DNA from: Romanomermis culicivorax
Lineage: Eukaryota > Nematoda > Enoplea > Mermithida > Mermithidae
DNA: 64,000 nt
Reading direction: 5' to 3'
Assembly: GCA_963922205.1 (NCBI GenBank)
Contig: CAWUHX010000254.1
Coordinates: forward strand, 248,001 to 312,000
This document shows, piece after piece, positions 4,276 to 45,315 of the stretch. The notes beneath the pieces are model-generated. The model made no database searches, was not told where the DNA came from, and saw only the letters and a program-made list of their open reading frames with translations. How positions within the stretch are numbered: the stretch's first letter is position 1; every line of letters begins with the position of its first letter. The translations under genes and the position numbers were made by a program.

Positions 4276-4287
4276 TCCCTCCCCCCC
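4276..4287 (-). promoter_or_regulatory. Element A polypurine tract
   Basis: On the minus strand the 12 bases touching the 3' LTR are GGGGGGGAGGGA, the expected primer site for plus-strand DNA synthesis. Element C has nearly the same tract before its LTR at 50456-50468, which ties the two elements together. Confidence 0.9.
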
Positions 4288-14789: not shown

Positions 14790-14829
14790 ATACGTCGAAG
14801 TTTCAAAATCGCAACATCGCCAAAGTACT

Positions 14830-15873
14830 TCAATTCTTAGGGTTCTGTATCTTCAGGCTTGAATGTGCCTTCCAAGAGAAATTGAGTATTTCTGCGGCCT
14901 CCATTTTATCCGATATTTCCTTATTCTTCATTCGACCCAAAATTATCTTGATTCTTTTCTCGGGATCTTCACAATATCGTCCATAATCTTGTTGATTCCG
15001 AGGAATACTTCCCGATATAGGTTGTTCCATTCTGCGATTCCACGACGTCGTTGGTATTTCATCCTCCATCCTTCGATATTGTGCACCTTGAGCCTGAGCC
15101 TGGGCGAGGTGATTTTCAAACCAATTTAATTTTCTTTCTAAACTTCTGTCTAAATTGTCTTTAACCGGTTCAGACTGAAGTACTTCCGTATTTTCATGAT
15201 TCAATATTCTTTCGTCGGGCCTCTTATCCGTTTTCTTCATCAATTCTGGCATTTGCTTTTCTACTTCTTCCATTATCTTTCTTGAGTTTTGCTGTTCTTG
15301 TTCCCGAAATTTTTCCTCCCATAACTTGCGTTCCGCTCTTTCTCGCATGAGTTGCTCCAATATTTCTTGTTCTCGTGTCGCCGCCTTTGTTCTTTCCACA
15401 TTAACGGCATTCGTCGATCTATCCACGGCTCTTTGCATTGATTCCAGGATGGCTAAAGTGGCCACATCCTGCAAATTTCCTTTCGTCGGACTTTCGGTTT
15501 CATTCCTCGATTTGGTTTCAATATCAACTTTCGCGTCGATTTCCGGTATTGTAGGCGTATATTTCAAATTATGAAATGATACCACATTCGTTTTCGGAGT
15601 TACATTAATCTTCTCGAAGGATGATACTGAACCCGAGGACGTCTGTATCCCCTGATCCGCATAATCATATGTCTCTGCGTCAATAGTCTGATCTTTGTTG
15701 CTATCATCGGGTGAATTTGCAAATTTCTTTGCTACTTGTTCAATCGTTGCTTCCATGTTTGCCATTTGTTCAGCTTGATCCTCTTTATTCAATTCCGTTT
15801 GCGATAATGTTACTTTCGGTCGTCGTCCAGGTTGCTTTCGTACCGTTAATTTCGGCTTCGATACTTTCTTCAT
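14830..15873 (-). pseudogene. gag: Element A gag, N-terminal part (frameshifted)
   Basis: 347 codons from an ATG 30 bases after the primer-binding site. It is charged and coiled-coil-like (long Arg/Glu/Gln-rich stretch around residues 150-230) and ends at a TGA at 14830. The capsid homology with element D Gag continues in the next frame (+1 relative), which is open from about 14857, so the two frames overlap by about 25 nt. Because the shift falls inside the capsid domain, a one-base indel is more likely than programmed frameshifting. The strongest support for gag identity is colinearity with the intact 669-codon gag of element D. Confidence 0.75.
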
Positions 15874-15887
15874 CTTTTACCTTTGTA

Positions 15888-15903
15888 GCTGTACAAGTCA
15901 CCA
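15888..15903 (-). promoter_or_regulatory. Element A primer-binding site (putative)
   Basis: One base after the 5' LTR the minus strand reads TGGTGACTTGTACAGC. It begins with the TGG that pairs with the CCA end of a tRNA. I cannot name the tRNA. Confidence 0.6.
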
Positions 15904-15904
15904 A

Positions 15905-16738
15905 TGTCGTATTAAGGTGCTCGTATGCCCTCGGCTGCCTACCTGCGGTTCTTGGGAGATCCAATCTGGTACGACCCCTGACGCTAACCCGGTACTACAA
16001 ATGGTCCTACTGCTGTGAGTTGAGACTTGATGTACGTGAACGTTTATTGGTGAGCGAAACACAACAGGTAGTAGAATACAACGATGAATGTAAGTACGAA
16101 CCAAAAGTGCAGAGTGCCAAAAGTACAAACGCTGGCGCCTTCAACCTCCCTAGTCGGCTGATCCTTCTTTTGTCCCTGAGCAACGAGCCACAGGGCCAAT
16201 AGGATATCTCAGGCCACGGCCTAAGCTGAAACTCTACCAAAAATAAGTAAGCTAACTCAAACCACCACTCACTGGTTCCTTTCCTCAAGATGGAACGTCG
16301 CAAACATCTCAGGCCGCGTCACTACTCAAATTCGCCCGCAGCGCGTACCACGAAATACAAATAAACAAAACGGGGATCCTTTCCTTCGTCACCACCGTCA
16401 AAATAACACAGCGTCCGAATGCTACGGAGCGGACGCCAATATCACACACGGGAGAGGCGATTCTCCAGACGAAAAATATTATTCACAATAATAATAATAA
16501 GAAGAATAAGAAGAATGAATAAAAACGCTGCCGCGCGTCTAACATCGACCTGCAAGTGATATGCAAAACATTTGTGCCAACCATTTATTTATTTTTGACC
16601 AAAAATATGAGTGACACAAACCGTTTTATCGGTTTGTTTACCTGAGAATAAATGAAAACACTTTAGCAATAAATGAACTTTAGAAAATGAAATGATGTAA
16701 TTAGAGGACCAAAGGTCAGAGGAATTGACCCTCTGACA
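15905..16738 (-). repeat. Element A 5' LTR (834 bp)
   Basis: Gap-free match to 3442-4275 with 11 differences, 9 of them CpG against TpG or CpA. It is the promoter-bearing LTR because the primer-binding site lies directly below it. Confidence 0.95.
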
Positions 16739-18269: not shown

Positions 18270-18441
18270 TGGACCGCTGCCGGTTCGCAGTCAAACATTT
18301 ACAGAATTTATGGAGCAGTATCACCAGTCGTTCGCCGCAACGTTGATATTGTTGCATTTCTGGTTTCTCTGCTGACGACTGCGTTGTAAATAATTGCGTT
18401 ATCATTAACACCAAAGCCGGCGAATATTGTATCAATAGCAT
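18270..18441 (-). CDS. Insulin-like peptide gene ILP-a, exon 1 (signal peptide and B chain)
   Basis: ATG at 18441 opens 57 codons plus one base and ends at a good donor (A then GTAAGCAG), phase 1. Residues 1-24 form a hydrophobic signal peptide with likely cleavage after SSA. The B chain follows with CGERLVILLHKFCKC: C-G-x2-L and C-x11-C spacing as in insulin B chains, plus an extra cysteine (C35, C47, C49). The B chain is identical to that of ILP-b exon 1, while the signal peptide differs. Its exon 2 would lie left of the window: the intron contains the foldback element, all of element A and unit 0. Insulin-like peptides are secreted ligands of insulin-receptor-type kinases controlling growth and metabolism. 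Whether this copy is still expressed across a huge intron is unknown. Confidence 0.85.
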
Positions 18442-18813: not shown

Positions 18814-21683
18814 GCTTTTACTGATGTCCCTAGCAACGGGAATAGGTTGCCTCGATTGACTTCATCATTAGTTCATAAACTATTCTCTGATATTCCCCAC
18901 AATGGTATACGATATGCATATTTGTCAGATTTTCCTCGTGCGGACTAATGAAACATATCTCAAAATTTTGCTCACACATGGGGTCTTCCATAACTACGCA
19001 CGATCAGTCAGTCTGAGTGGGGTTAAACTGGGATTTTGTCGGGTAGGTAAATAGTAAATATATATTAACTGGTTTTCTTTGAGAATACCCAAGCAAGAAA
19101 GCTTAAACGACCCAAATCTGTTAGTAGCAACTTGGTTCCTGTCAAAAAAGTGCAAATCGATTAGCCTCTGTGTTACATCGACTGGTAGCAACTCAAACAT
19201 GGTTTCAAAAAACCAGGCAGTAAATGCTCATCTGCCTAAAATCCATGTGTGGTGAATGAGCATCCTCTAGACCTGGTAGGGGTAAAACCCTCAAGGAGGT
19301 GTGGCCTTCAGCACCCATCTCCATGGATTGACCCCATGCAGACTATCTTGGCTCCATACAGAATTTTGGCTGACCCCAAGCGTATATCAGCTCCAGTAGA
19401 TTTTAAGTTTGCTTTTTCACACAGGTTACCTTTCTCTGATCGAACCTACAAGGAGCACTAGGATCTAAATATCAAATACGAATGATGAACTTAATTCAAA
19501 AAGCTAAAAACTGCTGCTAGATAAATTAACTCGTTCATTGGCTCGGAAATTTCTGAGTGTGATAATCGACAAAAGCCACTAAGTGTACATATGCGCCAAT
19601 CAACTGAATGGGCTGGTGAGTTGCATATAATTACGGAATTGGAATACAGTAAACCAGCAGCATTTTAATACTTTGCATAACAGGCGAAAAGAATTCGATT
19701 CTAAGAGCATATTTAACATTTTAGAAAGCTATCGGTCATGAGTGGTTCAAAATTCAAATTTAGTGCTATGGTTCACCTAAATAGAGAATTTTTCGAATTG
19801 TTGAAATTCTAAAAGGACGAGGAGAACTTCAATTGTGAATACTACTTACGACAACATAAAAAAGAATGTGATTTTCGACATGCAGAGCTGAAGGCTAAAC
19901 AGTGGGAGTTTTGTTATGCTATATATTTACTCTACTGAATATCATAAAAGACTACGGTCCATCACATTAAATGATACTCGTATATGAAAAATATACCAAA
20001 GACAGGATGATGTCAGCCATCTTTCTAACCAAAAAAATATTCACCCCCCTGTAAGTTCCCAAGTGCATAAAAGGTACCGTTTGTTCTTGCTTTTGGTCAT
20101 TGTTTTATTTTTTACCAAGAGGGCAATAAATCAATTTTGAACAAATAAAATGTCGTGTATATTATTCATGTAGTTATGTAACGCTTTCAGTGAAAAATTC
20201 GGCTTAATTTCAGTGAAAATTAATGTAGACTCAATAGTTTTGCCAATTCCAGGTTCGTTAATCAGGTCCTTTATAATTTTGATGATCTAAATACATTTAC
20301 ATTTAAGCGTAAATAGACAATAGACAATAATCGATTAATGATCAGAAATTGCGCAAGTAACCTTTTTGAAAATTTCTTGCACAAAATTGTTCCACAAAAT
20401 TACTAAAGGCAAAAAACGGTGCTCTGGATCCATTAACTCAATGTGTTTCCGATTCTCCTTCCTATTTATAATAACTATACTGTAAATAATTCAGTCAGTC
20501 AGGTACCAGTCATGTTCCAGTTTAGGGTAGATCTACAATCTATTTTCTGAATGGTGCTGTGCGATCGAAATTCCATATTTACACAAGAAAGTGTCATATA
20601 CTAACTACCGCAGCCTGGTAACTTGGCAATTGCACAAAAAACAAGAGAATGAAAATTTGAATTCAAAGCTATATAAAGTACATACATCAAAATTCAGGTC
20701 ATTTCCATACCGTTTATTCGTTAAAAGGCAGCAAAATAGACCGATGCCCAAATGGAATTTTCATGAAAATTATCATTGGCAGGGTAGGAAAGACTTCACA
20801 GTAGAAATTAAAATGCTTTCGATTATCTCTTACGCACTAATAATGCCATGGCATAAATTTGTAATGGTACAAGCGAAAAATACGTTTCCACAATGGCAAA
20901 AGCCATATGGAATTGACGTGATGTGGCAGGAGCAAGGTATAGGTAACCAAAATGTGTGCTGAAACGTGCTGATGGTGAAGTAGTCGTCTCTAGCTCATCC
21001 GCCAACTGCCACATAAAATTAGCACATCTTTCACATTGATCAATGCTAGTCCCGACCTTTGGCCTAATTTTCAGGGTTAGTGACTTTCAAATGAGCAATT
21101 CCCAAGTCAGCCATTCACATCATACATGTAGTTAGAGGGAAGTGCTATTGGAAATCCCTGCCCTCAAGGTAAATCGTCATCATTTGGATAGCCATTGGGC
21201 AACCCTAGCCCCAGGATTTCCCAATTATTCGTCTTAACAATGCGTGATCAGGTTCTAAAAAATGCAGGAAAAAGTTTCTATATTGTGTCAAGCGACAAAA
21301 AATTTGACTTTGTTTGCACTTTTTGACTAAAATTGGATTATTTTCAGCTTAAAAATTGACATTATTTCTTCGCTTTTCTCTTGTTTTTCTGTAATCAAAT
21401 GCACTAGTGAATCTAAAAATTAACTACACATGAAAAACATGAAGAGACGCTCTCCAGGAACCACCCAGAAAAAAACTGAATTTTTTCACTCTGGTCAAGT
21501 GAGAACTATGATCAAAAATAAATTTACATGGAGAATAATTGGACATAGTTTATATTTTTGTTCAGAAAAAAAGATAGAGACGAAAGGAGGTGAAAAATAC
21601 TCAAAAGTGTCCCTATACGCGGTTCTAAGGAGGGGAAGGAACGGTTAATAGCCACGTGCTCCAGGCCCATACAATAAACCTGT

Positions 21684-22024
21684 GGTCGGTTTCATCAAAG
21701 AGACTTAAGCTCCAGTTGAGCTGCAGCTTAAGCTTTAGCTTAACTCTCTATGCTATACCATTGCCGTTAGGCTGCAGCTCACCTGTAGCTTTACTCATAC
21801 ACACAAAACATATAGGGAAAGTTAAGCTGCATCTGAGCTGCACCTTAACGACAATGTTATAATATACAGAGTTAAGCTATAGATCAGCTGCAGCTTAACT
21901 TTCACAATATGTTTTGTGTGCATGAGTTAAGCTACGGCTGAGCTGCAGCTTAACGGCAATGGTATAACATACAGAGTTAAGCACCAGCTTAAGCTGCAGC
22001 TCAAGTCTCTTTGATGAAACCGCC
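21684..22024. mobile_element. Hairpin (snap-back) element of about 340 bp
   Basis: The left half is the near-perfect reverse complement of the right half. Ends read GGTTTCATCAAAGAGACTT and its inverse, and the interior repeats AGCTGCAGCTTAAGCT-like motifs around an AAAACATA block. It has no coding capacity. It resembles a snap-back MITE. A second copy is at 52473-52825. Confidence 0.7.
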
Positions 22025-22558
22025 CCTCCCCCCGTTCTTAACTTTGTCTATCGGTATCCCGAATGTGTTCATATCCCAAATGTGTCGGCGAACCCAATGT
22101 CTCAATATCCCAATTAATGAATTAATTCTCAGTATCCCAAACATTTATTTTTTATTATGTCACATTGACTAATTCCCGTCATTCCGAATACACATTTTTT
22201 GTTCATATTGTTGACTCTCCTTTTGCTCGAACTTCTCAGATGGGGCTAGGGCTTTAGGATTACGACTTGGCTTTGGCTTTGACATTCTTCATGGTGCCGA
22301 AACGTTCGGCTCTAGTGAGAATATTAGTTTTTGTGTATAAGACTATTCGGCATATTGATACATTCGGCATACTGATACTTGCAGGCATACTGATACGTGC
22401 AGCCTATAATTCCCTACAATGAAGGTAGATTGTTTATGAGTAGCAGCTGAAATATGATACGGAATAAGTTCTAACCAACGCTAATTTTTTCATCTGTCAT
22501 TTTCAACTGTATCAATCATAGTGCTGAAATTCCATCAAAGACACAAATGTCCACTGAT

Positions 22559-22915
22559 CACAGTGGTCTATTCCCAAGTGAGCCATTCTCAATTGAGCGA
22601 ATTCCCAAGTGAGCGAATTCTCAATTGAGCGATTCCCATGTGAGCGATTCCCAATTGAGCGAATTCTCAAGTAAGCCAGACGATTTCAAGCGAGTGATCG
22701 AGAATGCAGTAACACTTTCTTCATATTTTCCTTCTTTACCTACCTTTTTTTTTTTTTTTTACCTACTTTTACCTACTCTTTGTATTTTTTTCGTTTTTTG
22801 TGTGTATAATGTTTTTTCGTTTATGTATGTTCTTACGTTTTCATCTTGTGTCTCTGCCTTCTTTTATTTTCGTTTTTCTTTTCATCTACTTTTTTTTTTG
22901 CTCATGAAAGTTTAA
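22559..22915. repeat. Single arm of the foldback family with GAGCGA minisatellite tip
   Basis: Seven or so degenerate copies of a 17-18 base unit (GAGCGAATTCTCAATT and variants) run from about 22570 to 22690. The same T/C-rich arm as at 17120-17330 follows, but no opposite arm was found nearby. Near-identical copy at 53359-53690. Confidence 0.6.
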
Positions 22916-23852
22916 ATATTTCTGCCATGTTTATATTAATTTATATTGAACAATCAATGAAAAAGGGCATTTGATATATTTTGTGGGTGATATACATTTT
23001 GTGGGTATGATTGACTTTTTGCAGTAAAACTATCCTACTGTAGAAATGGACAAATACGTGCATCATAAATCTATTTGGCTAAATAATAAAAAGACAATAC
23101 AGCTGTGCTTTACATTATGGTCATAGCTATGACTGAGGGGACCAATCAAATTTCAATTTCAGTGAAAATGACGCAGTACCAATCATATTCAACCTCAACT
23201 TTTGATGGTAACATCTGATTGACACTAGTTTCTCAAAACATATTGGCTTTTACTTGCTTAAAGAATGCTCCAACACTTTGCTAACACGAAAGTAATGAAG
23301 GCGACTCAAACTTCGAACATACACCTTGTACATACTTGCCATCAACACTTTTCAGGAAGATGGCATTTCAAAAACCAGACTATAGATGTGTTGCAGTTAA
23401 AGACCACATTTGGCGCAAACATACCACAAATTGTTCAAGTTTAGTCTAATAATTTCAAAATGGCTCATTGCAATCCAAAAACAGTAAGTTCAGCATAGGA
23501 AAAATTATAAGTCTATAAAAATCGTCAATCATCAGTAAATAAACCAACTAATAAGCCCTTTCGATGTGTCTTTCTTCTACAGTATAGGCTTTGCTCTGTG
23601 AAAGTTGGGCATAAAATCGGATTTGCTATTTCATTTGTCGTGCGTCTGCTATTGCAAAAAAATGTAATATAACAATTTTAACATATTTCGTGTAGAATGT
23701 GCCACATAAACGTTATTCACTCACATTAGCCATCATAATTGTAATCGCATAAATTATGGACTGATAGTCGAAAAATATTGACCATTAAAAACAATGTGAA
23801 ATACATTCAGAGTGCTAAATCAATAACATATTATCTGAGTGATTGAAATATC

Positions 23853-24422
23853 TACAGGGTGGTCCAAAAAATAATAAACTCATCTGAGTCAATCGAGCTT
23901 AAGTATGCCTATTAAACTCATTAGATAGCATATTTATTACAGTTCTTCATCTTGAAATTTGATATCTACAGCTATAGTACACAATGAGCTCATAGTAAAT
24001 CACTGCTTTTCTATCTAAATTTTTACTTTTTCTTTCAAAATTAAAAAACTTACTTAACTTTGATGACCATCAACAAATATACTGCTTCCTGAAAAATTAG
24101 TACTTTTTAAAATTTCCGATACTTCTTTAATTCTGAACTACAGAATAATTCTAGTATAGTTAAACAAATTTAAATCAAATTTTAATGCAAAAAAATATCC
24201 GTGACTTTTTAGAAGTTTCCAGCAGTTCTGAAAATAATATTTTATGAAGATCCACAAAATTTCAACTCAAGCTCTACCAGCCGAGCTGAATTTTTCGACT
24301 GTGACTAAAGTTTCAACACACAATACTAGAATAATTTTATTATCAAACAGTGAAGATTGGAACATCTGATTACTGTAGATGAATAGCACTTTTAGGCAGG
24401 CCATTTTCCCGCACACCCCGTG
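23853..24422. mobile_element. Possible mariner-like MITE
   Basis: The left end TACAGGGTGGTCCAAAAA resembles mariner terminal repeats. The right end, read inverted, gives ACGGGGTGTGCGGGAAAA, an imperfect partner. It contains no ORF and is present at the same place in unit 2 (54626-55206). The right terminus is weak. Confidence 0.3.
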
Positions 24423-24470
24423 TTTTCATGGTGCTAGTAGCACTGGTCATTCATCATAGCACATACAAAA

Positions 24471-24706
24471 TTATTCGGCGCAAATCTTTTCACAATAAGA
24501 CATCAGTTCGTTATGTGAGCATGCTCTGTGGCAACACATTTCAACAATACTAAGCGACGGAGTTCTTTTGACTCGGATAGGAATTCTTCCATTGTGAACC
24601 TGTTGATCTACTGAATTTTTCGATGGAATGGTGTCACGTTTTCGTTTTTGAGAATAAATGTTCAACATTTCGCCATCATAATCATATGGGGAATGGCCAC
24701 CATGAC
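24471..24706 (-). CDS. Insulin-like peptide gene ILP-b, exon 2 (C-peptide and A chain)
   Basis: Begins after a strong acceptor (TTTTTTCAACCCAG) at 24707-24708 and ends at TAA 24471-24473. It enters with two bases completing a split Ser codon, so the intron is phase 1, as is the conserved intron in the C-peptide of insulin genes. Encoded are a C-peptide with a KRKR processing site and an RVKR furin-type site, then an A chain with IVEMCCHRACSHNELMSYC: the canonical CC-x3-C-x8-C insulin spacing, plus a further cysteine (EKIC). It joins exon 1 at 27932-28103 to give 135 residues with eight cysteines (three in B, five in A). A possible AATAAA lies at 24336-24341. The A chain is identical in the unit 2 copy. 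Confidence 0.92.
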
Positions 24707-27700
24707 CTGGGTTGAAAAAAGATGCAAATTTCAGATGATTATAATATGGTCAATGTCATTTTTTAGCAGGGGGCTTTTTAGAATATCCAGCATCATTTAC
24801 CATGAAAAAGAATTTTGTTGTGCCAGTCATACCATCAATTTGTTTTTCAATTTTCGCAGGTACATCTCTACCCATTTTCCTACAGCTGGAAAGGAAGACC
24901 TTACTATATGTTCATAAGTGCTCACCTTTTATGAGACTTGTTCCTTATACTCTTAGGGTGCTTCTAGCCCCCAAATGGAGACCATATTCCACCGGCCAGC
25001 TTCTGCTTAGCAAAGCAGGGCCTGTTCCACTATCTAACCATAAATGTGGTCTGCCTCTTCTTTCCTCACGTGTTGGACACCCTATTAATGCCCATTTCAC
25101 GATTGGGAAGTCAACATGCAAATCAATGATGGGCGTCTGGCAGGGGTGTACAACTTTGCATGACAACGGAGCGCCAAAGAAAAAAGAAAATGATTGTGAA
25201 AATGACTTCATGTTTTTATAATATATTTTGAGGGTTTCAAGCCGACACCGACCAAAATAAAGCTTTCTCCTTTTTCTGACATTGTTATTATTTTTATATT
25301 AGCATAAATTATCAGCATTAAAGTAAGTGTACAGGGGGCTATAGGTTCAGGCATTGCTTGCTTGCTGACGTCAGGTAGAAGACATAACATTGAGGGTCTC
25401 TTCTATCCAGTTTCTACGAGTGGATTTAGATCTTTCTCTGGGAGTCTATGACATCTGCTCTGTTAGGGCCCAACTATTTGTTATTTTTGTTGTTGCCAGG
25501 TCTGGGCGAGAACTGTTGCACTAGATCCGAGTTCTAGCCAAGAAGTAGTCCTAACTAGTCTCACTGACTATAGTTATATAGTAAGTGAGACTTGTTAGGA
25601 AAGACGCGCACAACACACACCTTATCAGGCTAACTGGGCTGAGTGAAACTGGGCAGGAAGCATTTCAAGCTTGCCTGCATAATTTATTGACTCCCTAGGG
25701 ATGAAAGACTGTGTCTGCCTAATGATAAACCTGCTTGTGAATAGGTTTTTTTTTTGCTCCATAATTCCGAATCCCCAACTATGAAATCTCTGGGGAACTC
25801 CTGGATAATTTTTGTTGTGCATGTCTCATTGTTTTTGTATTTTCGTTGTATACGGGATTGGACGTCCAAGTATATGCTTGATATGGTAACTCGTATTGTT
25901 TTGTGAGCGTAGGGAAAGGTATTTGTAAGGCCAGGTTATTGGAGATTGGGGTAGGAATCTTCTTGCTGACTTCAAGGTGTACTGCAGGCTCAGGGAGTTA
26001 CCCGGTTTAGGCTCTGTGAGTCTGGTTGGATGATTATCAGTTTGTTTATTGTTAGCCTGTGGTCGAACTGTTGCAACTTCCATTGTATTAACCCAAAGGT
26101 CAGTCTCATCCTTCCAAACCCACAGCTACCTAAAAATCTTGACGCCCTTTCATTTCAGTTTCGCTCTGATATATTGATGTCTCTTCTTCAAATAAATCTT
26201 GCTGTCAGGCCCAAACTTTTCCAAACTATTTCTAGTTTATTCTAACATAACTATTTTGCTTTTTGAAATACAGACTTAAAAGTAAACGAGAAACAAATAA
26301 AGTACAAAATAAATTCGATATAGCTATTCCGAGTTTATCCTGGAATATCTTTATTCTACCTTTATTTATTTTTACTTTATTTAGCGTTCTGGAATGTGGA
26401 CCTAAGTCTCATATGTCATACTCTTTAAGGCAAAGGAACTTCCTTATGTGATCCATAGAAGCTCTGAGCGAGGCAAACACGTGTGACGAACAAACTGTGT
26501 GCCACTAATTTACAGATCCGAGGACTAGTCTGATAAAGTGAAGGATAACGTTTGAAATTATATATGATTAGTTCTGAACGAAATTCTGGAAAATCGGAGA
26601 ATGACACAAAGATGTACTGATTCGAAAATCGTTTACATGATGCTTCTACCGTAGGATTTTGATTTTAAAATTAAGCAATAGTCTCAAAAATGAGGTATTC
26701 TCATGTGAGCGATTCCCAATTCAGTGAGTTCCCAAATGAGTGAATTCACAATTGGGTGATTCCAAACGAGCGATCGAGAATGTTATAACTCTTTGTTCAC
26801 ATTTTACTTCTTTACCACATTTTTTTCTTCGTGTATTTCTTTTTTCTTTCGTTTTCTGTGTGTATTGCATATGTTTTCGTTTATGTATGTTTTTTACGTT
26901 TTCATCTTTTGTTTGTGCTTTCTTTCATTTTCTTCCTTCTTGAGATCTAATTTTTTCTTTTTTCGCTCATGCTTCAATACACTACAAGTCGTAATATTCC
27001 GTATAATTCTTGTACAGTTCGGCATGCTTGTGTCTTTCATCGTCGTAAATGTGGAATTTTCATAAAAAATATAAGACAAAAAATTGCAGGAAGAAATAAA
27101 CATCAAGATTAAAGAAACGTCAACAAAAAGGCAGACATCCAGAATAAGTAAAAATAGATGGAAAAGCATTAGAAAAAGACAACAAAACATGAAAAAGTGA
27201 CAAAAAAGGAGAAGCAAGATAGAGAAACCAGCAAGGAAGGAGGAGAAAAATGTGAAAAAAGAAAGAATCAGGAGACTAGAAAAAGAGAAAGACGAAAAAG
27301 TAAAAGCAAAAAACTAAGATGAAAAGTAAATAAGAATGAAAAAAAAATCACAAAGAATGAAATTAATCGGGAAATAGAGCATGCCGGATTGTATCAGAGT
27401 TATATTGGAGACCATACTTATTAAAATGGCAACTTGTAATGCAAGGATAAAAATGCAAAAACATGCATAAACGAAAACATAAGCAACACACAGAAAGAAA
27501 GAAAAAAGTATATACAAAGAAAAATATAAAATAAAGAAGAAAAATATAAAGAAAGTGTTATTTCATTCTCTATCGTCCGTTAGAAATCGCCCATTTGAGA
27601 ATATGCTCTATTGGGAATCGCTCACGTGGGAATAGACAGTCTCACAAACCTTTAGTACGACAACAATACAACATTTCATGCTTTGTGATTTTACTGCTTA

Positions 27701-27931
27701 GAATTTACAGCATTTTGACAAATGAAAAAAATTGCTGGAAGGGATCTGCTCATAATTGACATCGAAAATTTTACGAGTTAGATCAAACCTCTACTGAAGG
27801 ATCAGTATGTATGCTAAAGTTCAACCTAAAATTTGTTCTAAAAATTTTTTGCATCAACTCGCTATACAGCACACAGGCATGCTTACTGAATGCTCGAAAT
27901 ATAACTTGGCAGATGAAAAAATTTTGCTTAC
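24707..27931 (-). other. Intron of ILP-b (3,225 nt)
   Basis: Donor GTAAGCAA-type at 27931 and acceptor CAG at 24707, phase 1. It spans the junction of units 1 and 2 and contains the foldback element at 26699-27625. An ORF of 139 codons on the plus strand at 24802-25221 starts with a hydrophobic stretch; the unit 2 copy (55576-55914) is shorter by exactly 27 codons. I do not consider it a gene without more evidence. Confidence 0.8.
26699..27625. mobile_element. Foldback-type element, unit 2 copy
   Basis: Counterpart of 16985-17965. The left arm starts with CATGTGAGCGATTCCCAA-type repeats, and the right arm ends with their inverse near 27590-27625. The T/C-rich arms are inverted and the centre differs somewhat. 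It sits inside the ILP-b intron. Confidence 0.65.
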
Positions 27932-28103
27932 TGGACCGCTGCCGGTTCGCAGTCAAACATTTACAGAATTTATGGAGCAGTATCACCAGTCGTTCGCCGC
28001 AACGTTGATATTTTTGCATATCTGGTTTCTCTGCTGACGACTGCGTTGTAAATAATTGCGTCATCATTAACACCAAAGCCGGCGAATATTGTATCAATTG
28101 CAT
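27932..28103 (-). CDS. Insulin-like peptide gene ILP-b, exon 1 (signal peptide and B chain)
   Basis: ATG at 28103 is chosen because it is the start shared with ILP-a; an additional in-frame ATG at 28127 would add eight residues and is blocked by a stop in ILP-a. There are 57 codons plus one base before the GTAAGC donor (phase 1). The signal peptide (1-24) is followed by the B chain with C35, C47 and C49. Compared with ILP-a there are four amino-acid changes, all in the signal peptide and the first residues after it, and none from the first B-chain cysteine to the donor. With exon 2 at 24471-24706 it gives a complete preprohormone: signal, B, C (cut at KRKR and RVKR) and A. Element B is inserted about 460 bp upstream of the start, possibly in or near the promoter. 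Confidence 0.9.
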
Positions 28104-28407
28104 TTTTTCAACTTTCTGAGAATACATGAAACATTCAGATGATAGATTATTGAGTCACATCCAGAACTCCTTTTCTCAGCATAGCAGAGTGTGAAAGATT
28201 CAAGCCTTTTCCATTTTTTTCATTCCCTGAATTTTCATTGATGGCAAGGAGAACCTGGAGAGCAAATTTTCTTTTACCATTCAAAAAAGCCTATCAATTA
28301 ATATCGAATTTGTTGCCTTTTAGAATAAAAAACTGTGACTTGTTGAGAGTGACCACAGTAATCACCTCAACTGAGATCTGTTGCAAATCGAGAGCACTTT
28401 TTCGTTA

Positions 28408-28556: not shown

Positions 28557-28563
28557 CCCCATA
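28557..28563. repeat. Target-site duplication of element B, left copy (CCCCATA)
   Basis: CCCCATA stands before the 5' LTR and after the 3' LTR (38719-38725). BEL/Pao usually duplicates about 5 bp, so part of this match may be chance. Confidence 0.65.
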
Positions 28564-28968
28564 TCGCGGAATTCGCGATTTTCGTTATTTTTTCATGTGT
28601 ATTTGTTTATTCTATCATATTATATAATTTTTCCAGTCATAAGTTTAAAAGTAACCTTAATCATTTTTGGTAACCTTTCTTTACGAGTAGGCTTTAAGGT
28701 TAATTTGACGGTATCATAATCACCCTTTCATTTTTTTCAAAAAAAATATATTCAAGAAAAATCTTATCTAAGAAAATGAATACATTATCCTTATATGTAA
28801 CCTTTATCCACTTTCATATGAAAGTGTGAGTTTTCCGTGTATTAGGTGTAGTTGTTGTTCTTTTCGTTATCACATTACCAGGGATTTTTAGCAGCAATCA
28901 TTGGTTTCAGAAAATTAAATTTCGTGTTTTTTATCGAACTGGGCGTTTTCGGGTCAATCATAGCCACA
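28564..28968 (+). repeat. Element B 5' LTR
   Basis: Begins at TCGCGGAATTC and ends at ATAGCCACA, the limits of its similarity to 38331-38718. The edges are approximate because the canonical TG...CA is not visible. A TGG at 28976 could begin the primer-binding site. Confidence 0.75.
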
Positions 28969-29169
28969 TCGTTTTTGGTGATTCCGCCAAGGAACCATAG
29001 ATCAACAAAGGTCAGCTACAAACTGTCAGTACAGTCCCTAAATTAAACAGTAGCATCAAACATTGGTTTCACTTCTTGTTCTACTCCTATCAGGCAACTT
29101 ATCACAGTGGTACAAAAGAGATTCCACAGTTGTTTAACTGATCTCCAACCTACAGATTTACAGATCAAG

Positions 29170-30480
29170 ATGGATACTAATAGAAGTAATCAAGATCATG
29201 TCAATGATTCAGATAATCTGGAATTCATAGCAGAAAATTTTATCAAGCGTATAAAATGGGCAGTTGAGATTTTGATGAATCAAAACAGAGAATGGTTGAG
29301 CATTCAGAAGAGTTTATCACAAAGTCAATTGACTCATGAAGTGGACTTGTATAATCAATAGTGTAATCAATCAGGCAGCTTTCCAGAGGATATTTGTAGT
29401 GGAAATGAAACAATCTCTAATCTTGAATCAAAGCTAGCAGAATATAAATCATTTATCACTCAGATTCGAAAAGCAGAACCCAATATTTCACAAGCTCAGC
29501 CTGCTCCATTGATGAATAGTAGTGTTATTCAACCGATGTATAATGATTTCCATCTTAGTATTTATCTGTCAAAACTACAACTCCCTCTGTATCATGGAGA
29601 TCCTTTGAAATGGACAGAGTTTTGGGATTCATTCGAATCAATTGTTCACAATCAAACAATCCCATCAGTTCAAAGGTTCAATTATCTTCTCAGTATTTTG
29701 AAAGGATCAGCATATAAATCTATAGAAGGGATATCAGTCACGAATTCAAATTATTTAGTGGCTATAGAAATCTAAAAACGTTTCGGCGATCCTAATGTTA
29801 TCAAACGATTTTTGTATGCTGAATTACGTAAGATTCCATCATCATCAAATATAACTTTCGAATTAAGACAAACTTTGAAAGCTATAGAGCGTATCATTCG
29901 TCAGTTATCTTCCTTGAAAGAAAACTTGAATCAACCAACTCTGATCATGTTGATCCTCGAAAAGTTACCTAATACAATTCTGATCGAGTTAGGCAAATCA
30001 AAGACCGATTCTTTCTGAGAAATGCATAATTTGTTAGAAAATCTCAATAAGATAATTGTTGTTCGTGAGGAAGCTTTCCAGATATCATCTACATTAGGCT
30101 TTAGAGAAAATGAGTCACGACCACAAAACAGAGCTCCAGCTCAAATACATCAAACCGTTGATCAGGAATTGGAAGACAGCTATCAATCATTAGTAGCAGC
30201 TAGAACTAGAAATCAGCGACATCAAAAATTCAATGTGCATTTTGTCAGGAGAGACATTTTAGTGATCAATGTAAAAAATTTGAGAAAGGAAAAATCTAAT
30301 CAGTACTCAGCAAACAGAGCCTGTTTTTACTGTCAAGGAAATCACAATCGCACCTTGTGTCTGAAAAATGAACCATCAAAATTTTCAGTTCCTGCATCTG
30401 AAACGCACTATCGTGGTTCAAGTGAAATCAACCATAATGAACCTTCTACATCATACAATGAGAATATAATTACAGTGAAC
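29170..30480 (+). pseudogene. gag: Element B gag (BEL/Pao type)
   Basis: From an ATG at 29170 the same frame runs on through isolated stops (29361, 29775, 30018). It carries the BEL/Pao Gag signature L-Q-L-P-x-Y-H-G-D-P-x-x-W-x-x-F-W-D-S-F near 29575-29630 and the helical region that follows. The CFYC...H...C zinc knuckle lies near 30321. Gag of this group assembles the particle and packages RNA. It is non-functional here. Confidence 0.85.
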
Positions 30481-33190
30481 AATACTTCAAATAATTCATC
30501 ACCTAAACTATCTCATGTAGCTCTTATGCTTTGTGAAGTTGAAGTTGTAAATTTGAAGAACAGATCATGTCCGATTAAATCATATGCATTTTTTGATACG
30601 GGTAGTCAAAAAACATATATCTCAAATCAATTATGTGCACAATTAGTTTTAGATTCGCCAATGAATGAAATTCTACAAATCAATACTTCCGGATCAACTA
30701 CTTCTAAGCAAATTTCCAGTTTTCCAGTAGCTTTCGGTATCATTTTGAAAGATGGATCTTGTAAAGAAATGAATGCGTCTTCTGTCGAAACTCTAACAGG
30801 GCATCTTATTACGCTACTGTTGAAGGAAGAAGATGTATGGGAGATAGAAATCAACAATCTTGACGGAATGGAAAAGACTTTAGAAAATCTAATCTCAAAT
30901 AGAAAGATCATTCCAGATATTCTAATTGGTATGGATTACTTCTGGGACTTCATTAATACAAATTCTATTTATCCGTTACCTTCAGGCTTACATTTGATAA
31001 AAACGAAAGTAGGTCCAATCTTTTCAGGAAATCAAACTGATAACTGGAATCATTCTTACAATATAAGTGTGATTCCATCATCATCCTCTGCTGAAGAGAC
31101 GGGTTTTGAAGTAGCACAACAAACAGAGATCACATCTGATGATAAGGATCTTGTGAAGTTTTGAGATCTAGAAACTATTAGTATCAAAGATGATCCTGAA
31201 GTCAAAGTTGACGATCTAGGTTTAAAGAAATTCAATAGTTCGATCAAATTTGATTAAAATCGATATTGTGTTAAATGGCCTTGGTAACCAGATCAAGTTG
31301 ATCTACGAGATAATTACTCATTATGCTTAGGCAGACTGAAATCACTATCAAAACGACTTTTTGATGATACGAGTACAAGTATGCTAGAGAATTATGATCA
31401 AGTTATCAAAGATCAATTATCAAAAGAGATCATTGAAAAAATCCAACCGTTTGAAGCATTATTTACCCCATTATGCAGTTATCACCCCTCAAAAATCTAC
31501 GACTAAAATCAGAGTAGTTTATGATGCATCTGCAAAGATTACTAAAAGAGATAAATCCTTGAATAAATGTTTGTATCGCTGTTTGTTTGTCCAATCATGC
31601 TACCTGATTTGTGCGGTTTGCTAATTCGTTTTAGAACAGCTCATATTGTCGTCACCGCTGATATAGAGAAAGCTTTTCTACGAATCACTTTACAAGAAGA
31701 AGATCATGATGTGACACGCTTTCTGTGGTTTAAGGATCCAAAACTTCCATCAGTTGAGAATAACATACAAGTCTATCGTTTCTGCAGAGTACCATTTGGA
31801 ATCATCTCTAGCCCATTCATTCTCAATGCAACTATCAGATATCATCTTAACAAAAGTAATAATCTATTAGCTAAGAAATTAAGGGAAAATATTTATGTTG
31901 ATAATCTAATCATTGGAGCTAAAGATCTCGAACAAGCATCGAAGATTTATCATGAAGGCAAACAAATTTTCAAAGATGCCAGTATGAATCTTAGAGAAGG
32001 GTTATCAAATTCTTGTGCGTTCAATATCGATGTAGATCCAATTGACAGAGGAAACAAATCATAAATCAAAGTACTGAGTATCTCGTGGGATACATTAAGT
32101 GATGCAATCCAATTAACAGTAACAGTCAATGCAGGAAATGTAGCTGTACTAACAAAGAGGCTGGTATTGGAACAAGTAGCACAAACTTTCGATCTTTTGG
32201 GATTATTATCACCTATTTTTTACCCGGAACAAAAGCTGTGGAAAATAGATTTATCTTCATCATCCAATAGCTTTTACAGGCGCATCACAGTCTGCGTATG
32301 CTGTTGTAGTTTATCTGTCTGGCATCTAATAAAAACATCACAATTCCTCGTTTGGAACTTCTTGGAGCAGTGATAGGTTTGAGAGCCATCAAATTTATTC
32401 AAAATCAAATAGCTATCAGCATAACATCAAAATTTTTGTTTATCGATTCAGAAATTGCTATTCATTGGATTAGAACATCAAAACTACAACGTGTTTTCAT
32501 TGAAAATCGAATAAAGTTCTTCAGAGAAAATCCAGACATTCAAATCAATCATGTACTAGGAACTGAGAATCCAGCAGATCTTGCCACAAGAGGTATATCA
32601 AGTACAGAGTTAGAAATCAGCAGCAGTTGGTGGTCTGGACCCAAATGTTTGAAAGAGCCTAAAGAAAAATGGTCAACATCAAATATAATGTTAGATAAAA
32701 AGTGCCTGAAACATGAAGAATCATCATCATCATTTCAGAATATTGTCAGCTTCTCAAATCACGAAATACAAAAGCACGACCCTATCTTCAATTTGAATCG
32801 ATTTTCAAATCTCAAAAAGGCATTAAATATTGTATCATATATCTGTCGTTTTATCAAGATCAAAGTTTGGAGCCGAATAGGTGATGATCATCTATTTAAA
32901 GTCCAGCATCCTAGACTAAAATCATTCTTCTTGGAAATCAAATCACATAGTCATTTCTCAGTGAATGAGTTGATATCACCCGAAACCATCCTAATTAAGG
33001 AATCACAGAAACTTTTTTATCAACACCTCTTAGATGATGAAAATCATAAGGAAGTGAAATTGAAACATCTCGGAATCAAAAAAGACATATCGATTTTTTA
33101 CCGAAATTTTAGCCAAACGTCAAAGTGTCGTGCATTTTGGCTTGAATCATACTCTATCAGAAGTGAGACGCGAATTCTGGATTACTAAAG
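30481..33190 (+). pseudogene. pol: Element B protease, reverse transcriptase and RNase H region
   Basis: The protease shows FFDTGSQKTY near 30590. The RT has RVVYDASAK near 31515, V-T-A-D-I-E-K-A-F near 31650 and a catalytic box reading YVDNL near 31900, where BEL/Pao RTs have YVDD, so it is dead at this residue. A QTFDLLGLLSP block near 32175 and the RNase H-like region with N-P-A-D-L-A-T-R-G near 32570 follow. Stops occur at about 31164, 31256 and 31284, and the frame changes several times after 31450. Order and motifs are typical of BEL/Pao. Confidence 0.88.
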
Positions 33191-34276
33191 GTCGATCTGT
33201 TGTGCAGACAGTTATCAAAAATGGTTTCATATGCAGAAAATATCATAGCGCACCTTATCAATTACCCAAGATGCCTCCATATCCAAAATAATGAGTCACT
33301 AAATCGAGACCTTTTAAGTTCACTGGTTTGGATTATCTCGGTTTATTCTGTGTCAAAAATATGGAGAAGATCAAAATATGGATTTGCCTCTTCACTTGTC
33401 TAAGTACGCGAGCAGTACATCTTGAATATATTATTGATCTTTCAACTCAGACTTTCCTGATTTGTATGAGACATTTCAAATCTAGACGAGGGAAACCAGA
33501 AAAAATAATATCTGACAATGCATCACAATTCAAGTTAGCTCATCAAGTGCTAGATCAAATTTGGGAATTCATCCAAAATGATGTAAATATCATCACATAT
33601 TGTTCAAGCCTAGGAATTAAATGGCAGTTCATCGTGGAATATTCTCCATGGCAAGGAGGTTTTCACGAGAGACTGGTAGGAATCGTGAAGTAGGCTATAA
33701 AGAAGAGCATCGATAAACAGATCTTATCATTCGATGGTTTTTTGACCCTTTTGGTCGAAGTGGAGGCTGTTGTCAACAGCAGACCCCTTATTTATCCTGA
33801 GAATGACGTCGATGTTCCTCTTATCTTGAGGCCACTAGATTTCATCAATCCTCTTGCTGAAATAGGCATACCATCTTTTGATCATAACCTCAATTTTGAT
33901 CCTGATAAGGAAGAAAATGAGGAAATATCTTTGATCCGTCATGATTACAGTACTACTCAAAAACTGATATTATATTGAAAAACAGTCAGAATACCTTGAA
34001 TCATTTTTGGAAATTGGGGCATGATAACTATCTTCTCAATTTGAGAGAAAGATCACCAATGTTTCACTGATCACCAAGGACGCGTAGTGTCACTGAACCC
34101 AAAGAGAATGAGATTGTTTTGATCAAAGACGAAAATCTACCGAGAGGCTTCTGGAAGTTGGGTCGATTGATTAAGATCAATCAATCCACATCTGATAATC
34201 AAATAAGATCTGCTCAAGTAGAGTTAGCTAACAAAATAATCCTAAATAGATCTATCAATCTATTGTATCCCTTAGA
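33191..34276 (+). pseudogene. Element B integrase with C-terminal BEL/Pao domain
   Basis: The core region shows the first-Asp block near 33325 (G-L-D-Y), then C-L-S-T-R-A-V-H-L-E near 33400, S-D-N-A-S-Q-F near 33515 and a degenerate catalytic glutamate block near 33660 (F-H-E-R-L-V). N-S-R-P-L and R-P-x-D-F blocks near 33775-33835, and L-P-R-G-F-W-K-L-G-R (34140) of the C-terminal domain, complete the typical order. It is broken by stops near 33693 and 33978. Confidence 0.88.
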
Positions 34277-37200
34277 AATAAGGTTATCTAATGAATCAAA
34301 TGAAACAACTGTGACAGAAGTTCATACTATACAATGTGAGAAGCGTATCAAGTTATCAATCCCATCCATGCTTTTAATAATATTATTGATCCTCCTTAGT
34401 TTTCCTAGCTATGCTTTTCAACACATCATTCAAAATCATGAATGTCCAAATTATAACTTAAAGAATGTCATCTATTCACAGAAATGTTTAAAATCAGGAT
34501 TAGTGATTCAGAAGTCGGAGAGCGAAAATCTATGTTATTCAAAATGCCCGAATGGTCATTTATCAGTATCTGGCAAATGTGTTCACAAATTTTCCTGTCC
34601 TTCCTGGGCAGATGATTGTTTATTCTATAGTGGTCTATTACCTGCTGTCATTGGAGATAAGGAATCCATTCTGATTTCTGCTTATCCAAACATCTGTTCA
34701 TTCAAATCAAAACCAGGTTGTGAACCTAAAGCAATACATACAACAGTTCATCAGATTAAACTTTTCGATAATTCAACCCATTTTGTGAATCATCTACAGC
34801 TTGCATCTGTTTCAACATCAAGAGATAATTTTATTTGTGTTGGGGAGGGCCTGACAATTGGTTCTCCAGAATATTGTGAAATCTATCATTGTAGTAAGGT
34901 CGGTAAAAAATTTTGCTTTTTTGATCAACATGACAGAGTGAAATTTGTAAATGAAGAAGATGAAATACCAATCAAAAGTTGGGGAACAGTTTTTATTGCT
35001 ATCTATCCACATAAATCTAAAAAATTAGAAGAAGGTTTTTCTCATTAATGTATCAATTGTTCAATGAGTTGTATTCAAGGTGGCCTAAAGCTCACACTGG
35101 ATCCAAGAATTGGCTCCATTGATATATGTTCAAAACCATTCTGTTATCAGGTACATCATCCAAAATTGAAGCAATTATCCAATTTCCTAAAGAATCAATC
35201 ATAAAACCTCACGAGTTTGATATCAAAATATGGAAAGAAGGCTTCATTGTGAAACAGCTTAGCATCCACTGCCCAGCATCAGTATTCTGTGAAATGATCG
35301 ACTGTTATTTCTGCTTTGAAATCATACATAATCCACAATGTGCACCTAAATTTGCACTATTTTTGAGTATGGTCTTCATCTATTTTGGTTTAGCAATATG
35401 CTATATGATCATAAAAATCGCAAAATCAATATTCAAAATTTGTAATATATGTCTCAAAATTTTTCATAGGCTTTTTAAATTACCATACATTATTTTCATT
35501 GCCCTAAAATGAAACATCTGGAAATTAAAATCAGAAGCAACGTATCATAGTACAGAAACAACTTTATCAGGAAGATTCAAATTTCAACCTAGCTGTCATA
35601 AATATTCCCTGGTCATAATTATTTTCACAATCATGCTGCCAGTAGCAGATCTGTGTGCAGAAGTAACACCAATCACAGTATCCACTTCTTCATGCGCTAA
35701 CTCGAAAAATGGTCTATCGATTGTAGATTATCAGAAATGTTGAGATTATCATTTTACCTCAAGCACAAGACACGTGTATCACAATTCTTGGTGAGAATCA
35801 GGAACCACTTGGAACAATCATTCTACAAGTTAGAGAAATATTATTAGAATGTGAAGTAAAGAATGAATATTATACGAGATCATTTTCCATGCACGAACAA
35901 TCTTCCAAGTGATGCTATCTACGTGGATCATGTTTTGGAGAAAAATGTGTATCAGTAACAACCGATAGCATAATTGAGGAATTGGATGGCGAAGCTAATC
36001 AGCATCCTGGATTTAGTTATTGTGCTGAATCTTGTGGATGTGCTGCATGTGGTTGTATCACCTGCAGTTCAGCATGTCTACTCTATCGAACATATGCAAA
36101 ACCAACATCAGATAAGATATTCAAGGTTTTCTCTTGCCCAATCTGGAGCCTTAAAGTATCAATGAGAGTTGATATAGTTTTCCAAAATTCATCTTATTGG
36201 CACGGGTTCGACTTGAAACCAGAGCTTATCAAAAACTGGAAGAACCTAAAACTCAATATACCTTCATTGGTAAGCCCTCCACTTCCTATTCTAGGGAGTC
36301 AGTTTTTAACAGACAGTCAAAAAACTATCATGATCAAAGCATCAGCATTAGGTCAACCTACGTCAGGAACAATTGGACAATTTCAGTGTGCATCCAGAAA
36401 TACGGCAATTATGTTTGACTGCTACTTGCCACATGATATTTGTAATTGTCAGATGCAAGAATCAAGAGCATCATGTAGTTGCCCTGAGCAGATAATTGAA
36501 CCACATTTTGAGAAAGAGGAGTATCTAATACCAATGATCATAGAAGGTATATCTATCACTGGATCAGGAACTCATATCGAAGCAAAGTATAACAGTTTAG
36601 CTGCAATTGAGTTACAACTATCTATGGAAGGATTTCATCTTCAATCAACAACAAGCAAAAATGAGTGTATCATTAAGTTCATAGAACTAGCAGGATGTAA
36701 CAATTGCTTATCTGGGGCTAAACTCATTTATTCTTGTCTTACTGATTTTGATCAAGCAGTAGCCCATGTCACATGTGGGACTTCGTTTTTTCAACTATAT
36801 GCACTCCTAAAGAATCTACTTATACATCTGTCCTGAACTTTATTCACGCTTTAATCAATCAAACATGCAAAGTCAGTTGTCCAGCTAAAACTACTGAATT
36901 TTTTATAAGGAAAAATAAGGAAATTTCATGTTTGTGTCAAAAGAAAGGATCAATAATATCAGTAATGTTATCACTTTTATCAAAGAAACAAGAACAGATG
37001 ACATTGATATAAAATTTTCTTTATCTTCAGTGATTTTTTCTAATGATCTTCTAACACTGTCTTGTGCTGTGATATTTGTCATCTTTATTTTTCCCTTCAT
37101 CATTTGTTGTATTCCACGTTTATTGCTGTTTTTCAAATCAGATCAATGCAAAAATTGCGCCATAAGCAATTCTAATCCATTTCAGATGTCATCCAGATCT

Positions 37201-37278
37201 CAAAGCCATTCAATAGGATCCACTCAAACTGACAAATCCCAGGAAGATCAAGATCAAGATTGGAAGCGAAAACGATAG
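34277..37278 (+). pseudogene. env: Element B envelope gene, phlebovirus-glycoprotein-like
   Basis: Four overlapping or adjacent fragments (about 34277-35048, 35126-35512, 35982-36836, 36773-37278) are rich in paired cysteines. Near 34368 a hydrophobic segment looks like a signal peptide or membrane anchor. Around 35340-35500 there is another membrane segment. The fragment at 35982 carries a C-G-C-x2-C-G-C-x2-C-x3-C pattern followed by L-x-Y-R, and further C-x-C motifs, as in the G2/Gc class II fusion glycoprotein family of phleboviruses. Near 37030-37130 lies a last membrane segment, then a charged tail. Envelope genes of this origin are known in BEL/Pao elements of nematodes. This copy is broken by frameshifts and stops and cannot make a full protein. 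Confidence 0.75.
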
Positions 37279-37380
37279 CATGGGAATCAAATATCGACCC
37301 CTTTGAATTTCATCAACTATCAATGTTCGAAAAGATCTTTCCATTATCCAATGGAATTTTGTATCGGATGATATCCATCA

Positions 37381-37776
37381 GAAATCCCCATTGATCTCAG
37401 CATCAAAATACTCAAATCGAATCCAAAAACAAATATCTATGGAGCCATTAGATCAGACACTGATCAGTTTGGTAAATTATCTGTCATTGTTTTCCAATGT
37501 AATGAGAATACAGTCGATTTTTCGCTTGACCAGCATCAAATTACGATGGAATTATTGGAATTTTTTGAATCAAACAGCCCCTTCATCAGCGATCACAAAG
37601 ATATGTTATCATCCTTGCATCCTTCTTTAGCTGGTAAAATTTGCATCGATGTCTACAACCTTCTACAGCCTCTGACCAACTTCCAAACATCTTTTTTGCC
37701 CAGCCAATTACTCAAAATTTTGAATTTATTGCTATCAATTGTTTTCAAGCTAGAAATCAATCGATCGAATGTCTAG
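37381..37776 (+). pseudogene. Element B unidentified ORF after env
   Basis: An open stretch of about 130 codons in one frame, ending at 37776, between env and the 3' LTR. It is Leu/Ile/Asn-rich with no cysteine clusters or membrane segment. I do not recognise it. It might be an accessory gene or the remnant of one; it has no obvious ATG at its upstream end. Confidence 0.4.
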
Positions 37777-45204: not shown

Positions 45205-45315
45205 TTGATTTCCGCATACCACAACTCTCGTTATCTCGCTATCGTAGCCCGATCCAGTTGTCCAAGTGCACCCATCAAGGTGACATCGCCGCCCAAGCCA
45301 ACGCCGCCTCAAAGC

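What the first reader, a model, noticed from the sequence alone, without database searches (positions are those of the whole stretch)
24471..28103. Insulin-like preprohormone gene in a tandem array
Two minus-strand exons fit together into a 135-residue insulin-like precursor: signal peptide, B chain with C-G-x2-L and C-x11-C, C-peptide with KRKR and RVKR sites, and A chain with CC-x3-C-x8-C. The donor (A then GTAAGC) and acceptor (TTTTTTCAACCCAG) are good and the intron is phase 1, as in insulin genes. Further exon copies at 18270-18441 and 55245-55480 show at least three genes in tandem.
Basis: partly seen in the sequence, partly recalled or inferred. Interest (0 to 1): 0.92.

Follow-up and report, generated by a model that had tools for sequence, protein, structure and literature searches.

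The report
Worm insulin-like hormone gene array
This stretch of DNA from a mosquito-killing roundworm carries what looks like a genuine insulin-type hormone gene in a head-to-tail row of related copies, broken up by jumping genes and wrongly drawn in public databases; it is a new member of a familiar hormone family rather than something of a new kind.

Summary
Two minus-strand exons (28103-27932, 24706-24471) join in phase 1 into a 135-residue precursor above Pfam's Insulin/IGF/Relaxin cut-off (27.7 bits, cut-off 23). Public matches point to Romanomermis culicivorax, a mermithid nematode parasitic on mosquito larvae, as host. Homologous blocks show three head-to-tail copies: gene 2 is complete in the window, gene 1 shows exon 1 only, gene 3 exon 2 only. 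Gene 1's exon 2 is probably known: public protein P0001 appears to begin in gene 1's intron at the window's left edge. Retroelements interrupt the array, one inside gene 1's intron with a 4-bp target duplication. Both public models of these genes appear faulty. The precursor has eight cysteines, suggesting a fourth B-A disulfide, in a spacing unlike C. elegans INS-1 and INS-6; it falls below the nematode beta-type cut-off. Most likely these are secreted worm hormones acting on the worm's own insulin receptor. No transcript was tested, and the genome search did not complete. New member of a known kind, of moderate interest; mimicry of mosquito insulin is not excluded but unsupported.

The parts
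27932..28103 (-). gene 2, exon 1: signal peptide and B chain (57 codons + 1 base)
   Evidence: translation; 98% match over 61 aa to public protein P0002
24707..27931 (-). gene 2 intron, phase 1, 3225 bases, GT...AG
   Evidence: donor GTAAGC kept in copy 1, acceptor CAACCCAG kept in copy 3
24471..24706 (-). gene 2, exon 2: linker, KRKR, C-peptide, RVKR, A chain, stop (TAA at 24471-24473)
   Evidence: 70% identity to P0001
24336..24341 (-). AATAAA about 130 bases downstream of the gene 2 stop; also present downstream of gene 3
   Evidence: sequence
28116..28124 (-). TATTCTCAG, a splice-acceptor-like site 12 bases upstream of the gene 2 ATG, kept in gene 1; the public model P0002 seems to use it as an acceptor
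   Evidence: sequence; P0002 residues KVEK before the ATG
18270..18441 (-). gene 1, exon 1 (168 of 172 bases same as gene 2)
92..116 (-). piece of gene 1 intron that the public model P0001 seems to use as a first exon (MLEKIEGT + 1 base, then GTAATA); ties P0001 to gene 1
   Evidence: (10 residues, 90%, E 0.24); inference
55245..55480 (-). gene 3, exon 2 (231 of 236 bases same as gene 2)
3442..16738 (-). Ty3/gypsy-type LTR retrotransposon inside the gene 1 intron: LTRs 3442-4275 and 15905-16738 (11 of 834 bases differ), 4-bp target duplication CTTA
   Evidence: type name from domain content, recalled
28562..38718 (+). BEL/Pao-type LTR element about 460 bases upstream of the gene 2 ATG; LTR pair 82% identical, CCCCA on both sides; ends read by eye
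40314..51060 (+). insert between the array units with aspartic protease, reverse transcriptase and RNase H; no LTR pair found
57587..64000 (+). region after the end of gene 3 intron similarity, with reverse transcriptase; runs off the window, so exon 1 of gene 3 is not seen
20336..25112 (.). array unit, gene 2 copy: exon 2 and downstream region, homologous to 51061-55886
   Evidence: 82.3% and 94.5% identity
51061..57586 (.). array unit, gene 3 copy: downstream region, exon 2 and part of the intron

Best explanation
A tandem array of at least three insulin-like prohormone genes of Romanomermis culicivorax (or a very near relative). Each gene is transcribed from the minus strand and spliced at one phase-1 intron between B-chain and C-peptide/A-chain exons. 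The precursor enters the secretory path through its signal peptide, proprotein convertases cut at KRKR (or KQKR) and RVKR, and a B-A hormone remains, held by the three canonical insulin disulfides and probably a fourth B-A disulfide (Cys49-Cys133). It then acts on the worm's own DAF-2-type insulin receptor. Shown here: exon sequences, splice sites, frame, cysteines, basic sites, family score, copies, retroelement interruptions. Inferred: splicing, secretion, cleavage, disulfide pairing, receptor and direction of signal (agonist or antagonist).
For: Pfam PF00049 27.7 bits for gene 2, 36.6 for P0001, 34.9 for the gene 1 composite, cut-off 23. A-chain motif expected 0.05 times per window, seen 2 times, both in the exon 2 copies. 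Exon 1 differs at 4 of 172 bases between genes 1 and 2 against 75 of 444 aligned in the adjoining intron and 34 of 449 upstream (Fisher p 7e-8 and 0.014, tests chosen after seeing the data). Gene 1 (if P0001 is its exon 2) and gene 2 differ at 23 of 77 exon 2 residues, yet align without gaps and keep all 5 A-part cysteines and both basic sites, KRKR as KQKR; that P0001 has no stop tells nothing, as it is a predicted protein. A daf-2 homologue is reported in all 23 other nematodes surveyed, R. culicivorax among them (PMC4924289, passages). In C. elegans, the convertases EGL-3 and KPC-1 remove the C peptides of INS-1 and INS-18 at KR and R-x-x-R sites (PMC3978837, passages).
Against: No transcript or peptide evidence was available. 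Exon 2 of genes 2 and 3 is no better conserved than its flanks (5 of 236 against 5 of 406 and 17 of 489, p 0.51 and 0.37), so constraint is not shown there. All 4 base changes in exon 1 between genes 1 and 2 are non-synonymous (0 changes at about 38 synonymous sites, 4 at about 133 non-synonymous); in exon 2 of genes 2 and 3 the figures are 2 at 47.5 and 3 at 183.5: too few to judge. Neither public model joins the exons as proposed. P0001 is assigned to gene 1 by a 10-residue match (E 0.24) plus matching donor, phase and place, not by contiguous DNA.
Confidence: 0.85

Rival explanations
1. Some or all copies are relics or assembly duplicates (for example uncollapsed haplotypes placed in a row), with one working gene or none.
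For: Copies 2 and 3 are 94-99% alike around exon 2. The long-read assembly paper reports oversized assemblies from two of the programs used (PMC10879605, passages). Retroelements sit in the gene 1 intron and upstream of gene 2.
Against: Genes 1 and 2 differ more than alleles usually would (first part of the intron 83% alike; 23 of 77 residues in exon 2 if P0001 is gene 1) and keep cysteines. Three distinct copies lie in order on one stretch. The public model P0002 spans the same order upstream of gene 2.
Confidence: 0.1
2. The peptide is sent into the mosquito host as an insulin mimic (a 'doppelganger' hormone).
For: The worm lives in mosquito larvae (PMC10879605, passages). The precursor scores above the insulin/IGF/relaxin cut-off but below the nematode beta cut-off, and the best solved matches to the A chain include a Conus insulin (Con-Ins G1a), human insulin analogues, bombyxin and fly DILPs. 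A review says that mimics tend to diverge in the active chains and conserve signal and spacer (PMC12962067, passages); here the A chain differs at 12 of 30 residues between genes 1 and 2 and the linker through RVKR at 11 of 47.
Against: The B chain is almost unchanged (2 of 34), against the mimic pattern. A chain versus linker is not significant (p 0.13). The same A chain also matches C. elegans INS-1 (13 of 26 residues). No secretion-into-host data; no comparison with mosquito insulins was made; insulin signalling is expected in any nematode.
Confidence: 0.05
3. The peptide belongs to the relaxin or Dilp7/8-like branch of PF00049 and signals through a G-protein-coupled receptor.
For: PF00049 covers insulin, IGF and relaxin alike.
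Against: Of the solved-structure matches, 33 of 35 and 44 of 47 are insulins, IGFs, bombyxin or fly insulin-like peptides and none is named relaxin; the A chain reads IVExCC as in insulins. The relaxin receptor motif was judged from memory only.
Confidence: 0.04

Closest known systems
C. elegans INS-1 (P0003) and its Caenorhabditis and Diploscapter relatives
   Same: B-C-A precursor with a hydrophobic N-terminus, a basic site before the A chain, eight cysteines in B and A parts; C-peptide removal shown for INS-1 (PMC3978837, passages).
   Different: 24% identity to INS-1, 22-28% over the 8 relatives aligned (8 of the 9 hits); local match only in the A chain, 13 of 26 residues. Extra cysteines at B C-x4-C and A CC in INS-1, against B C-x1-C and A C-x3-C here. 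INS-1 passes the Ins_beta cut-off (31.0 bits, cut-off 21), gene 2 does not (8.4).
C. elegans INS-6 (PDB 2kji, 8tk9, 'insulin-like peptide beta-type 5'; the name INS-6 is recalled)
   Same: Canonical C-x11-C and CC-x3-C-x8-C plus one extra cysteine in each chain part.
   Different: Extra cysteines at B C-x3-C and A CC; the solved chain runs on from B to A.
Strongyloides stercoralis ILPs
   Same: Nematode insulin-like peptides, some with eight cysteines (type beta) and two with predicted cleaved C peptides.
   Different: [quoted passage not shown] the mermithid gene has the intron and an RVKR site.
Insulin genes of other animals
   Same: Intron between the B and A parts, cleavable C-peptide, insulin-like A chain (gene layout recalled, in part from PMC3493385).
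   Different: Two additional cysteines and a four-residue stretch between RVKR and the SIVE/GIVE start. Molluscan MIP-1, called type beta in PMC3493385, was not compared.

Membership tests
Insulin/IGF/relaxin superfamily (PF00049) | Profile score above curated cut-off | tested here: met
   27.7 bits against 23 for the spliced gene 2 protein, residues 34-129
Insulin/IGF/relaxin superfamily (PF00049) | Cysteine framework C-x11-C (B) and CC-x3-C-x8-C (A) | tested here: met
Insulin/IGF/relaxin superfamily (PF00049) | Signal peptide | tested here: inconclusive
   hydrophobic stretch at residues 4-20 in an 11-residue hydropathy scan; no dedicated predictor was on hand
Insulin/IGF/relaxin superfamily (PF00049) | Basic cleavage sites flanking a C-peptide | tested here: met
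   KRKR and RVKR in genes 2 and 3, KQKR and RVKR in P0001; cleavage itself not tested
Insulin/IGF/relaxin superfamily (PF00049) | Phase-1 intron between B and A chain parts | tested here: met
   by sequence, no transcript (that this position and phase are typical is recalled, with partial support from PMC3493385)
Insulin/IGF/relaxin superfamily (PF00049) | Secreted hormone that binds an insulin-type receptor | not testable with these tools
   needs expression and receptor assays
Nematode beta-type insulins (PF03488, Ins_beta) | Profile score above curated cut-off | tested here: not met
   8.4 bits against 21 for gene 2; not listed for the gene 1 composite or P0001; INS-1 as control 31.0
Nematode beta-type insulins (PF03488, Ins_beta) | Eight cysteines | tested here: met
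Nematode beta-type insulins (PF03488, Ins_beta) | Extra cysteines in the INS-1/INS-6 spacing | tested here: not met
   10 of 10 comparators (the 9 hits, one a 55-aa fragment without a readable B motif, and INS-6) have the extra A cysteine directly after the fourth; genes 1 and 2 have it after three residues

The most novel reading that the evidence does not exclude
The array makes insulin-like peptides with a mermithid-specific fourth disulfide that act on the mosquito host's insulin receptor, so that copies with a nearly fixed B chain and a changing A chain let the parasite tune host growth or metabolism.
Probability: 0.05. Interest if true: 0.8.

Novelty: new member of a known kind. Interest (0 to 1): 0.36.

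Why it matters
Insulin-like peptides are well studied in C. elegans and its relatives, but a 2016 survey that included R. culicivorax said that a comprehensive survey of these short peptides across nematodes was still necessary (PMC4924289, passages). This locus offers a complete predicted precursor from the Dorylaimia, with an intron between the B and A parts and a cleavable C-peptide, an extra cysteine pair in another spacing than the INS-1 and INS-6 comparators, and tandem duplication. It also shows how public annotation can lose such genes when introns and flanks are full of retroelements.

Tried and rejected
Chance ORFs: rejected by the Pfam score, by conservation of exon 1 between copies 1 and 2, and for the A-chain motif by the shuffle control; the B motifs alone would not have passed. 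A flatworm origin (my first guess, no call): dropped after the matches to R. culicivorax. Orphan exons as a sign of broken genes: not needed, because the missing halves would fall beyond the window edges, behind retroelements. Viral or bacterial relatives: 77 and 411 stretches matched patterns in viral contigs and genome contigs, none confirmed; the patterns came from the signal peptide and its neighbourhood, so these scans say little about the hormone itself. A second protein search with a two-row alignment found only the same two proteins. tRNA and Rfam (gathering) scans of the window found nothing; NCBIfam had no match for gene 2. An exonuclease-like ORF suspected in two retroelements had no Pfam family above cut-off in the parts searched. 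The whole-genome search did not complete, so copy number outside the window is unknown.

Full report
Observation. The minus strand of 28103-27932 reads from an ATG through 57 codons plus one base; 24706-24471 continues in phase 1 to a TAA stop. The join gives 135 residues, with a GT donor and an AG acceptor behind a pyrimidine-rich stretch. The B part has C-x11-C with CG-x2-L, the A part CC-x3-C-x8-C, and KRKR and RVKR lie between. In six-frame scans the A motif occurs only in the two exon 2 copies, 2 against 0.05 expected from 100 shuffles; the CG-x2-L-x7-C motif occurs twice against 0.38, and plain C-x11-C 77 times against 63.5, so the B motifs alone are weak evidence.

Family. Pfam's Insulin/IGF/Relaxin profile matches the joined protein over residues 34-129 at 27.7 bits, above its cut-off of 23; C. 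elegans INS-1 as a control scores 31.9. The nematode beta-type profile scores 8.4 against a cut-off of 21, INS-1 31.0. In the PDB the matches are mostly A chains of insulins, IGFs and insect insulin-like peptides, with weak E-values from 0.012 (gene 2) and 0.0015 (gene 1 composite) upward.

Host. Two protein searches found only two relatives, both from Romanomermis culicivorax, a mermithid nematode of the Dorylaimia. P0002 (183 aa, uncharacterised) matches the window in pieces: 40073-39972 (71% over 35 residues), 38126-38052 and 30878-30687 (100% over 25 and 64), weakly 30363-30331 (11 residues, E 0.41), and exon 1 of gene 2 with four codons upstream at 98% over 61 residues. It therefore looks like a model of this locus that runs antisense through a BEL/Pao-type element into the true exon 1. 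P0001 (86 aa, insulin-like) starts with eight residues and one base that match window 116-92 in the gene 1 intron, where a GT donor in phase 1 follows, and goes on with an exon 2 that is not in the window. The 10-residue match alone has E 0.24; the assignment to gene 1 rests on match, donor, phase and place together. One residue differs between P0002 and gene 2 exon 1, so allele, assembly or a very near relative may differ.

Array. Self-comparison orders the blocks. Gene 1 exon 1 lies at 18441-18270, gene 2 at 28103-24471, gene 3 exon 2 at 55480-55245. Upstream and downstream blocks repeat in the same order and strand, so the copies are head to tail; the ATGs of genes 1 and 2 are 9.7 kb apart, while the exon 2 copies of genes 2 and 3 are 30.8 kb apart with two large inserts between. 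Exon 1 of genes 1 and 2 differs at 4 of 172 bases, against 34 of 449 upstream and 75 of 444 in the intron. Exon 2 of genes 2 and 3 differs at 5 of 236, against 5 of 406 in the intron and 17 of 489 downstream; 2.9 kb further downstream is 96.3% alike. The first contrast fits constraint on exon 1; the second shows none. If P0001 is gene 1, genes 1 and 2 differ at 2 of 24 signal, 2 of 34 B-part, 11 of 47 linker/C-peptide (sites included) and 12 of 30 A-part residues. The larger change in exon 2 than in exon 1 (23 of 77 against 4 of 57, p 0.001) and in the A than in the B part (p 0.002) are post hoc tests; A part against linker is not significant (p 0.13).

Retroelements. An element with reverse transcriptase, RNase H and integrase, and protease matches just below the cut-off, fills 3442-16738 in the gene 1 intron; its LTRs differ at 11 of 834 bases and CTTA stands on both sides. 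Genes 2 and 3 have the uninterrupted sequence at that site. A BEL/Pao-type element (28562-38718 by eye) sits about 460 bases upstream of gene 2. An insert at 40314-51060 has protease, reverse transcriptase and RNase H but no LTR pair. The gene 3 intron similarity ends at 57586, and a region with reverse transcriptase follows to the window's end. High repeat content is reported for this genome (47% in the 2013 paper PMC3890508, 68.2% in the long-read assembly PMC10879605; passages).

Cysteines. Eight cysteines: 35, 47, 49 in the B part and 115, 116, 120, 129, 133 in the A part. Cys49 and Cys133 lie next to the canonical pair 47-129, so a fourth B-A disulfide is plausible; it was not modelled. 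In 8 of the 9 hits (INS-1 and relatives; the ninth is a fragment without a readable B motif) the extra B cysteine follows after four residues, in INS-6 after three, and in all 10 the extra A cysteine follows directly; here the spacings are one and three. The comparators are all C. elegans, other Caenorhabditis or Diploscapter; other phyla and other Dorylaimia were not compared, so whether the spacing is new is open.

Function. The likely path is secretion, cleavage at the basic sites and binding to the worm's DAF-2-type receptor. Support comes from general insulin biology, from daf-2 homologues in all 23 other nematodes surveyed (PMC4924289, passages) and from C-peptide removal in C. elegans INS-1 and INS-18 (PMC3978837, passages). 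Agonist or antagonist cannot be told. A conserved TATTCTCAG 12 bases before the ATG in genes 1 and 2 could be a 5' UTR or trans-splicing acceptor. A host-directed role is possible but the nearly unchanged B chain speaks against it.

Literature. Eight searches were run, and ten papers opened. 'Insulin' does not occur in the main text of the R. culicivorax genome paper PMC3890508, the long-read paper PMC10879605, the Mermis genome paper PMC10989877 or the R. wuchangensis transcriptome paper PMC5035087 (term counts and passages). PMC5357569 (whole text read) surveys 73 nematode secretomes without naming this species in the text, and its tables were not seen. Of the 12 papers holding both 'Romanomermis culicivorax' and 'insulin' only PMC4924289 was opened (passages); it scored C. 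elegans dauer-gene homologues, ins-1 and ins-18 among them, in species including this one, but its figures and supplements were not seen, so an earlier partial listing of these genes cannot be excluded. PMC3493385, PMC3978837, PMC4741068 and PMC12962067 were seen in passages.

Noticed in passing
window 35913-36836 (+): Inside the BEL/Pao-type element one ORF matches the Phlebovirus G2 glycoprotein fusion domain strongly (206 bits), that is an envelope-like gene; described only.
   Followed up: partly
window 8230-9525 (-) and 45121-50061 (+): Two different inserts each carry a large extra ORF beside pol, with the stretches 'IALDTES' and 'GFDTES' that recall DEDD exonucleases (motif recalled); no Pfam family above cut-off in 8230-9525 or in 45121-46620, the part searched.
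   Followed up: partly
window 21680-22025 and 52473-52829: Inverted, partly palindromic repeat of about 350 bases in two array units.
   Followed up: no
window 16993-17121, 22570-22678, 26712-26770, 53364-53472: Related tandem repeats of about 16/31 bases (ATTCCCAAGTGAGCGA-like) recur in introns and spacers of the array units.
   Followed up: no
window 40000-52000: GC near 50% in this stretch against about 35-36% on either side.
   Followed up: no
window 30878-30687 and 38126-38052 (-): Public protein P0002 (A0A915IDC0) appears to be a chimera of retroelement antisense and insulin exon 1.
   Followed up: yes
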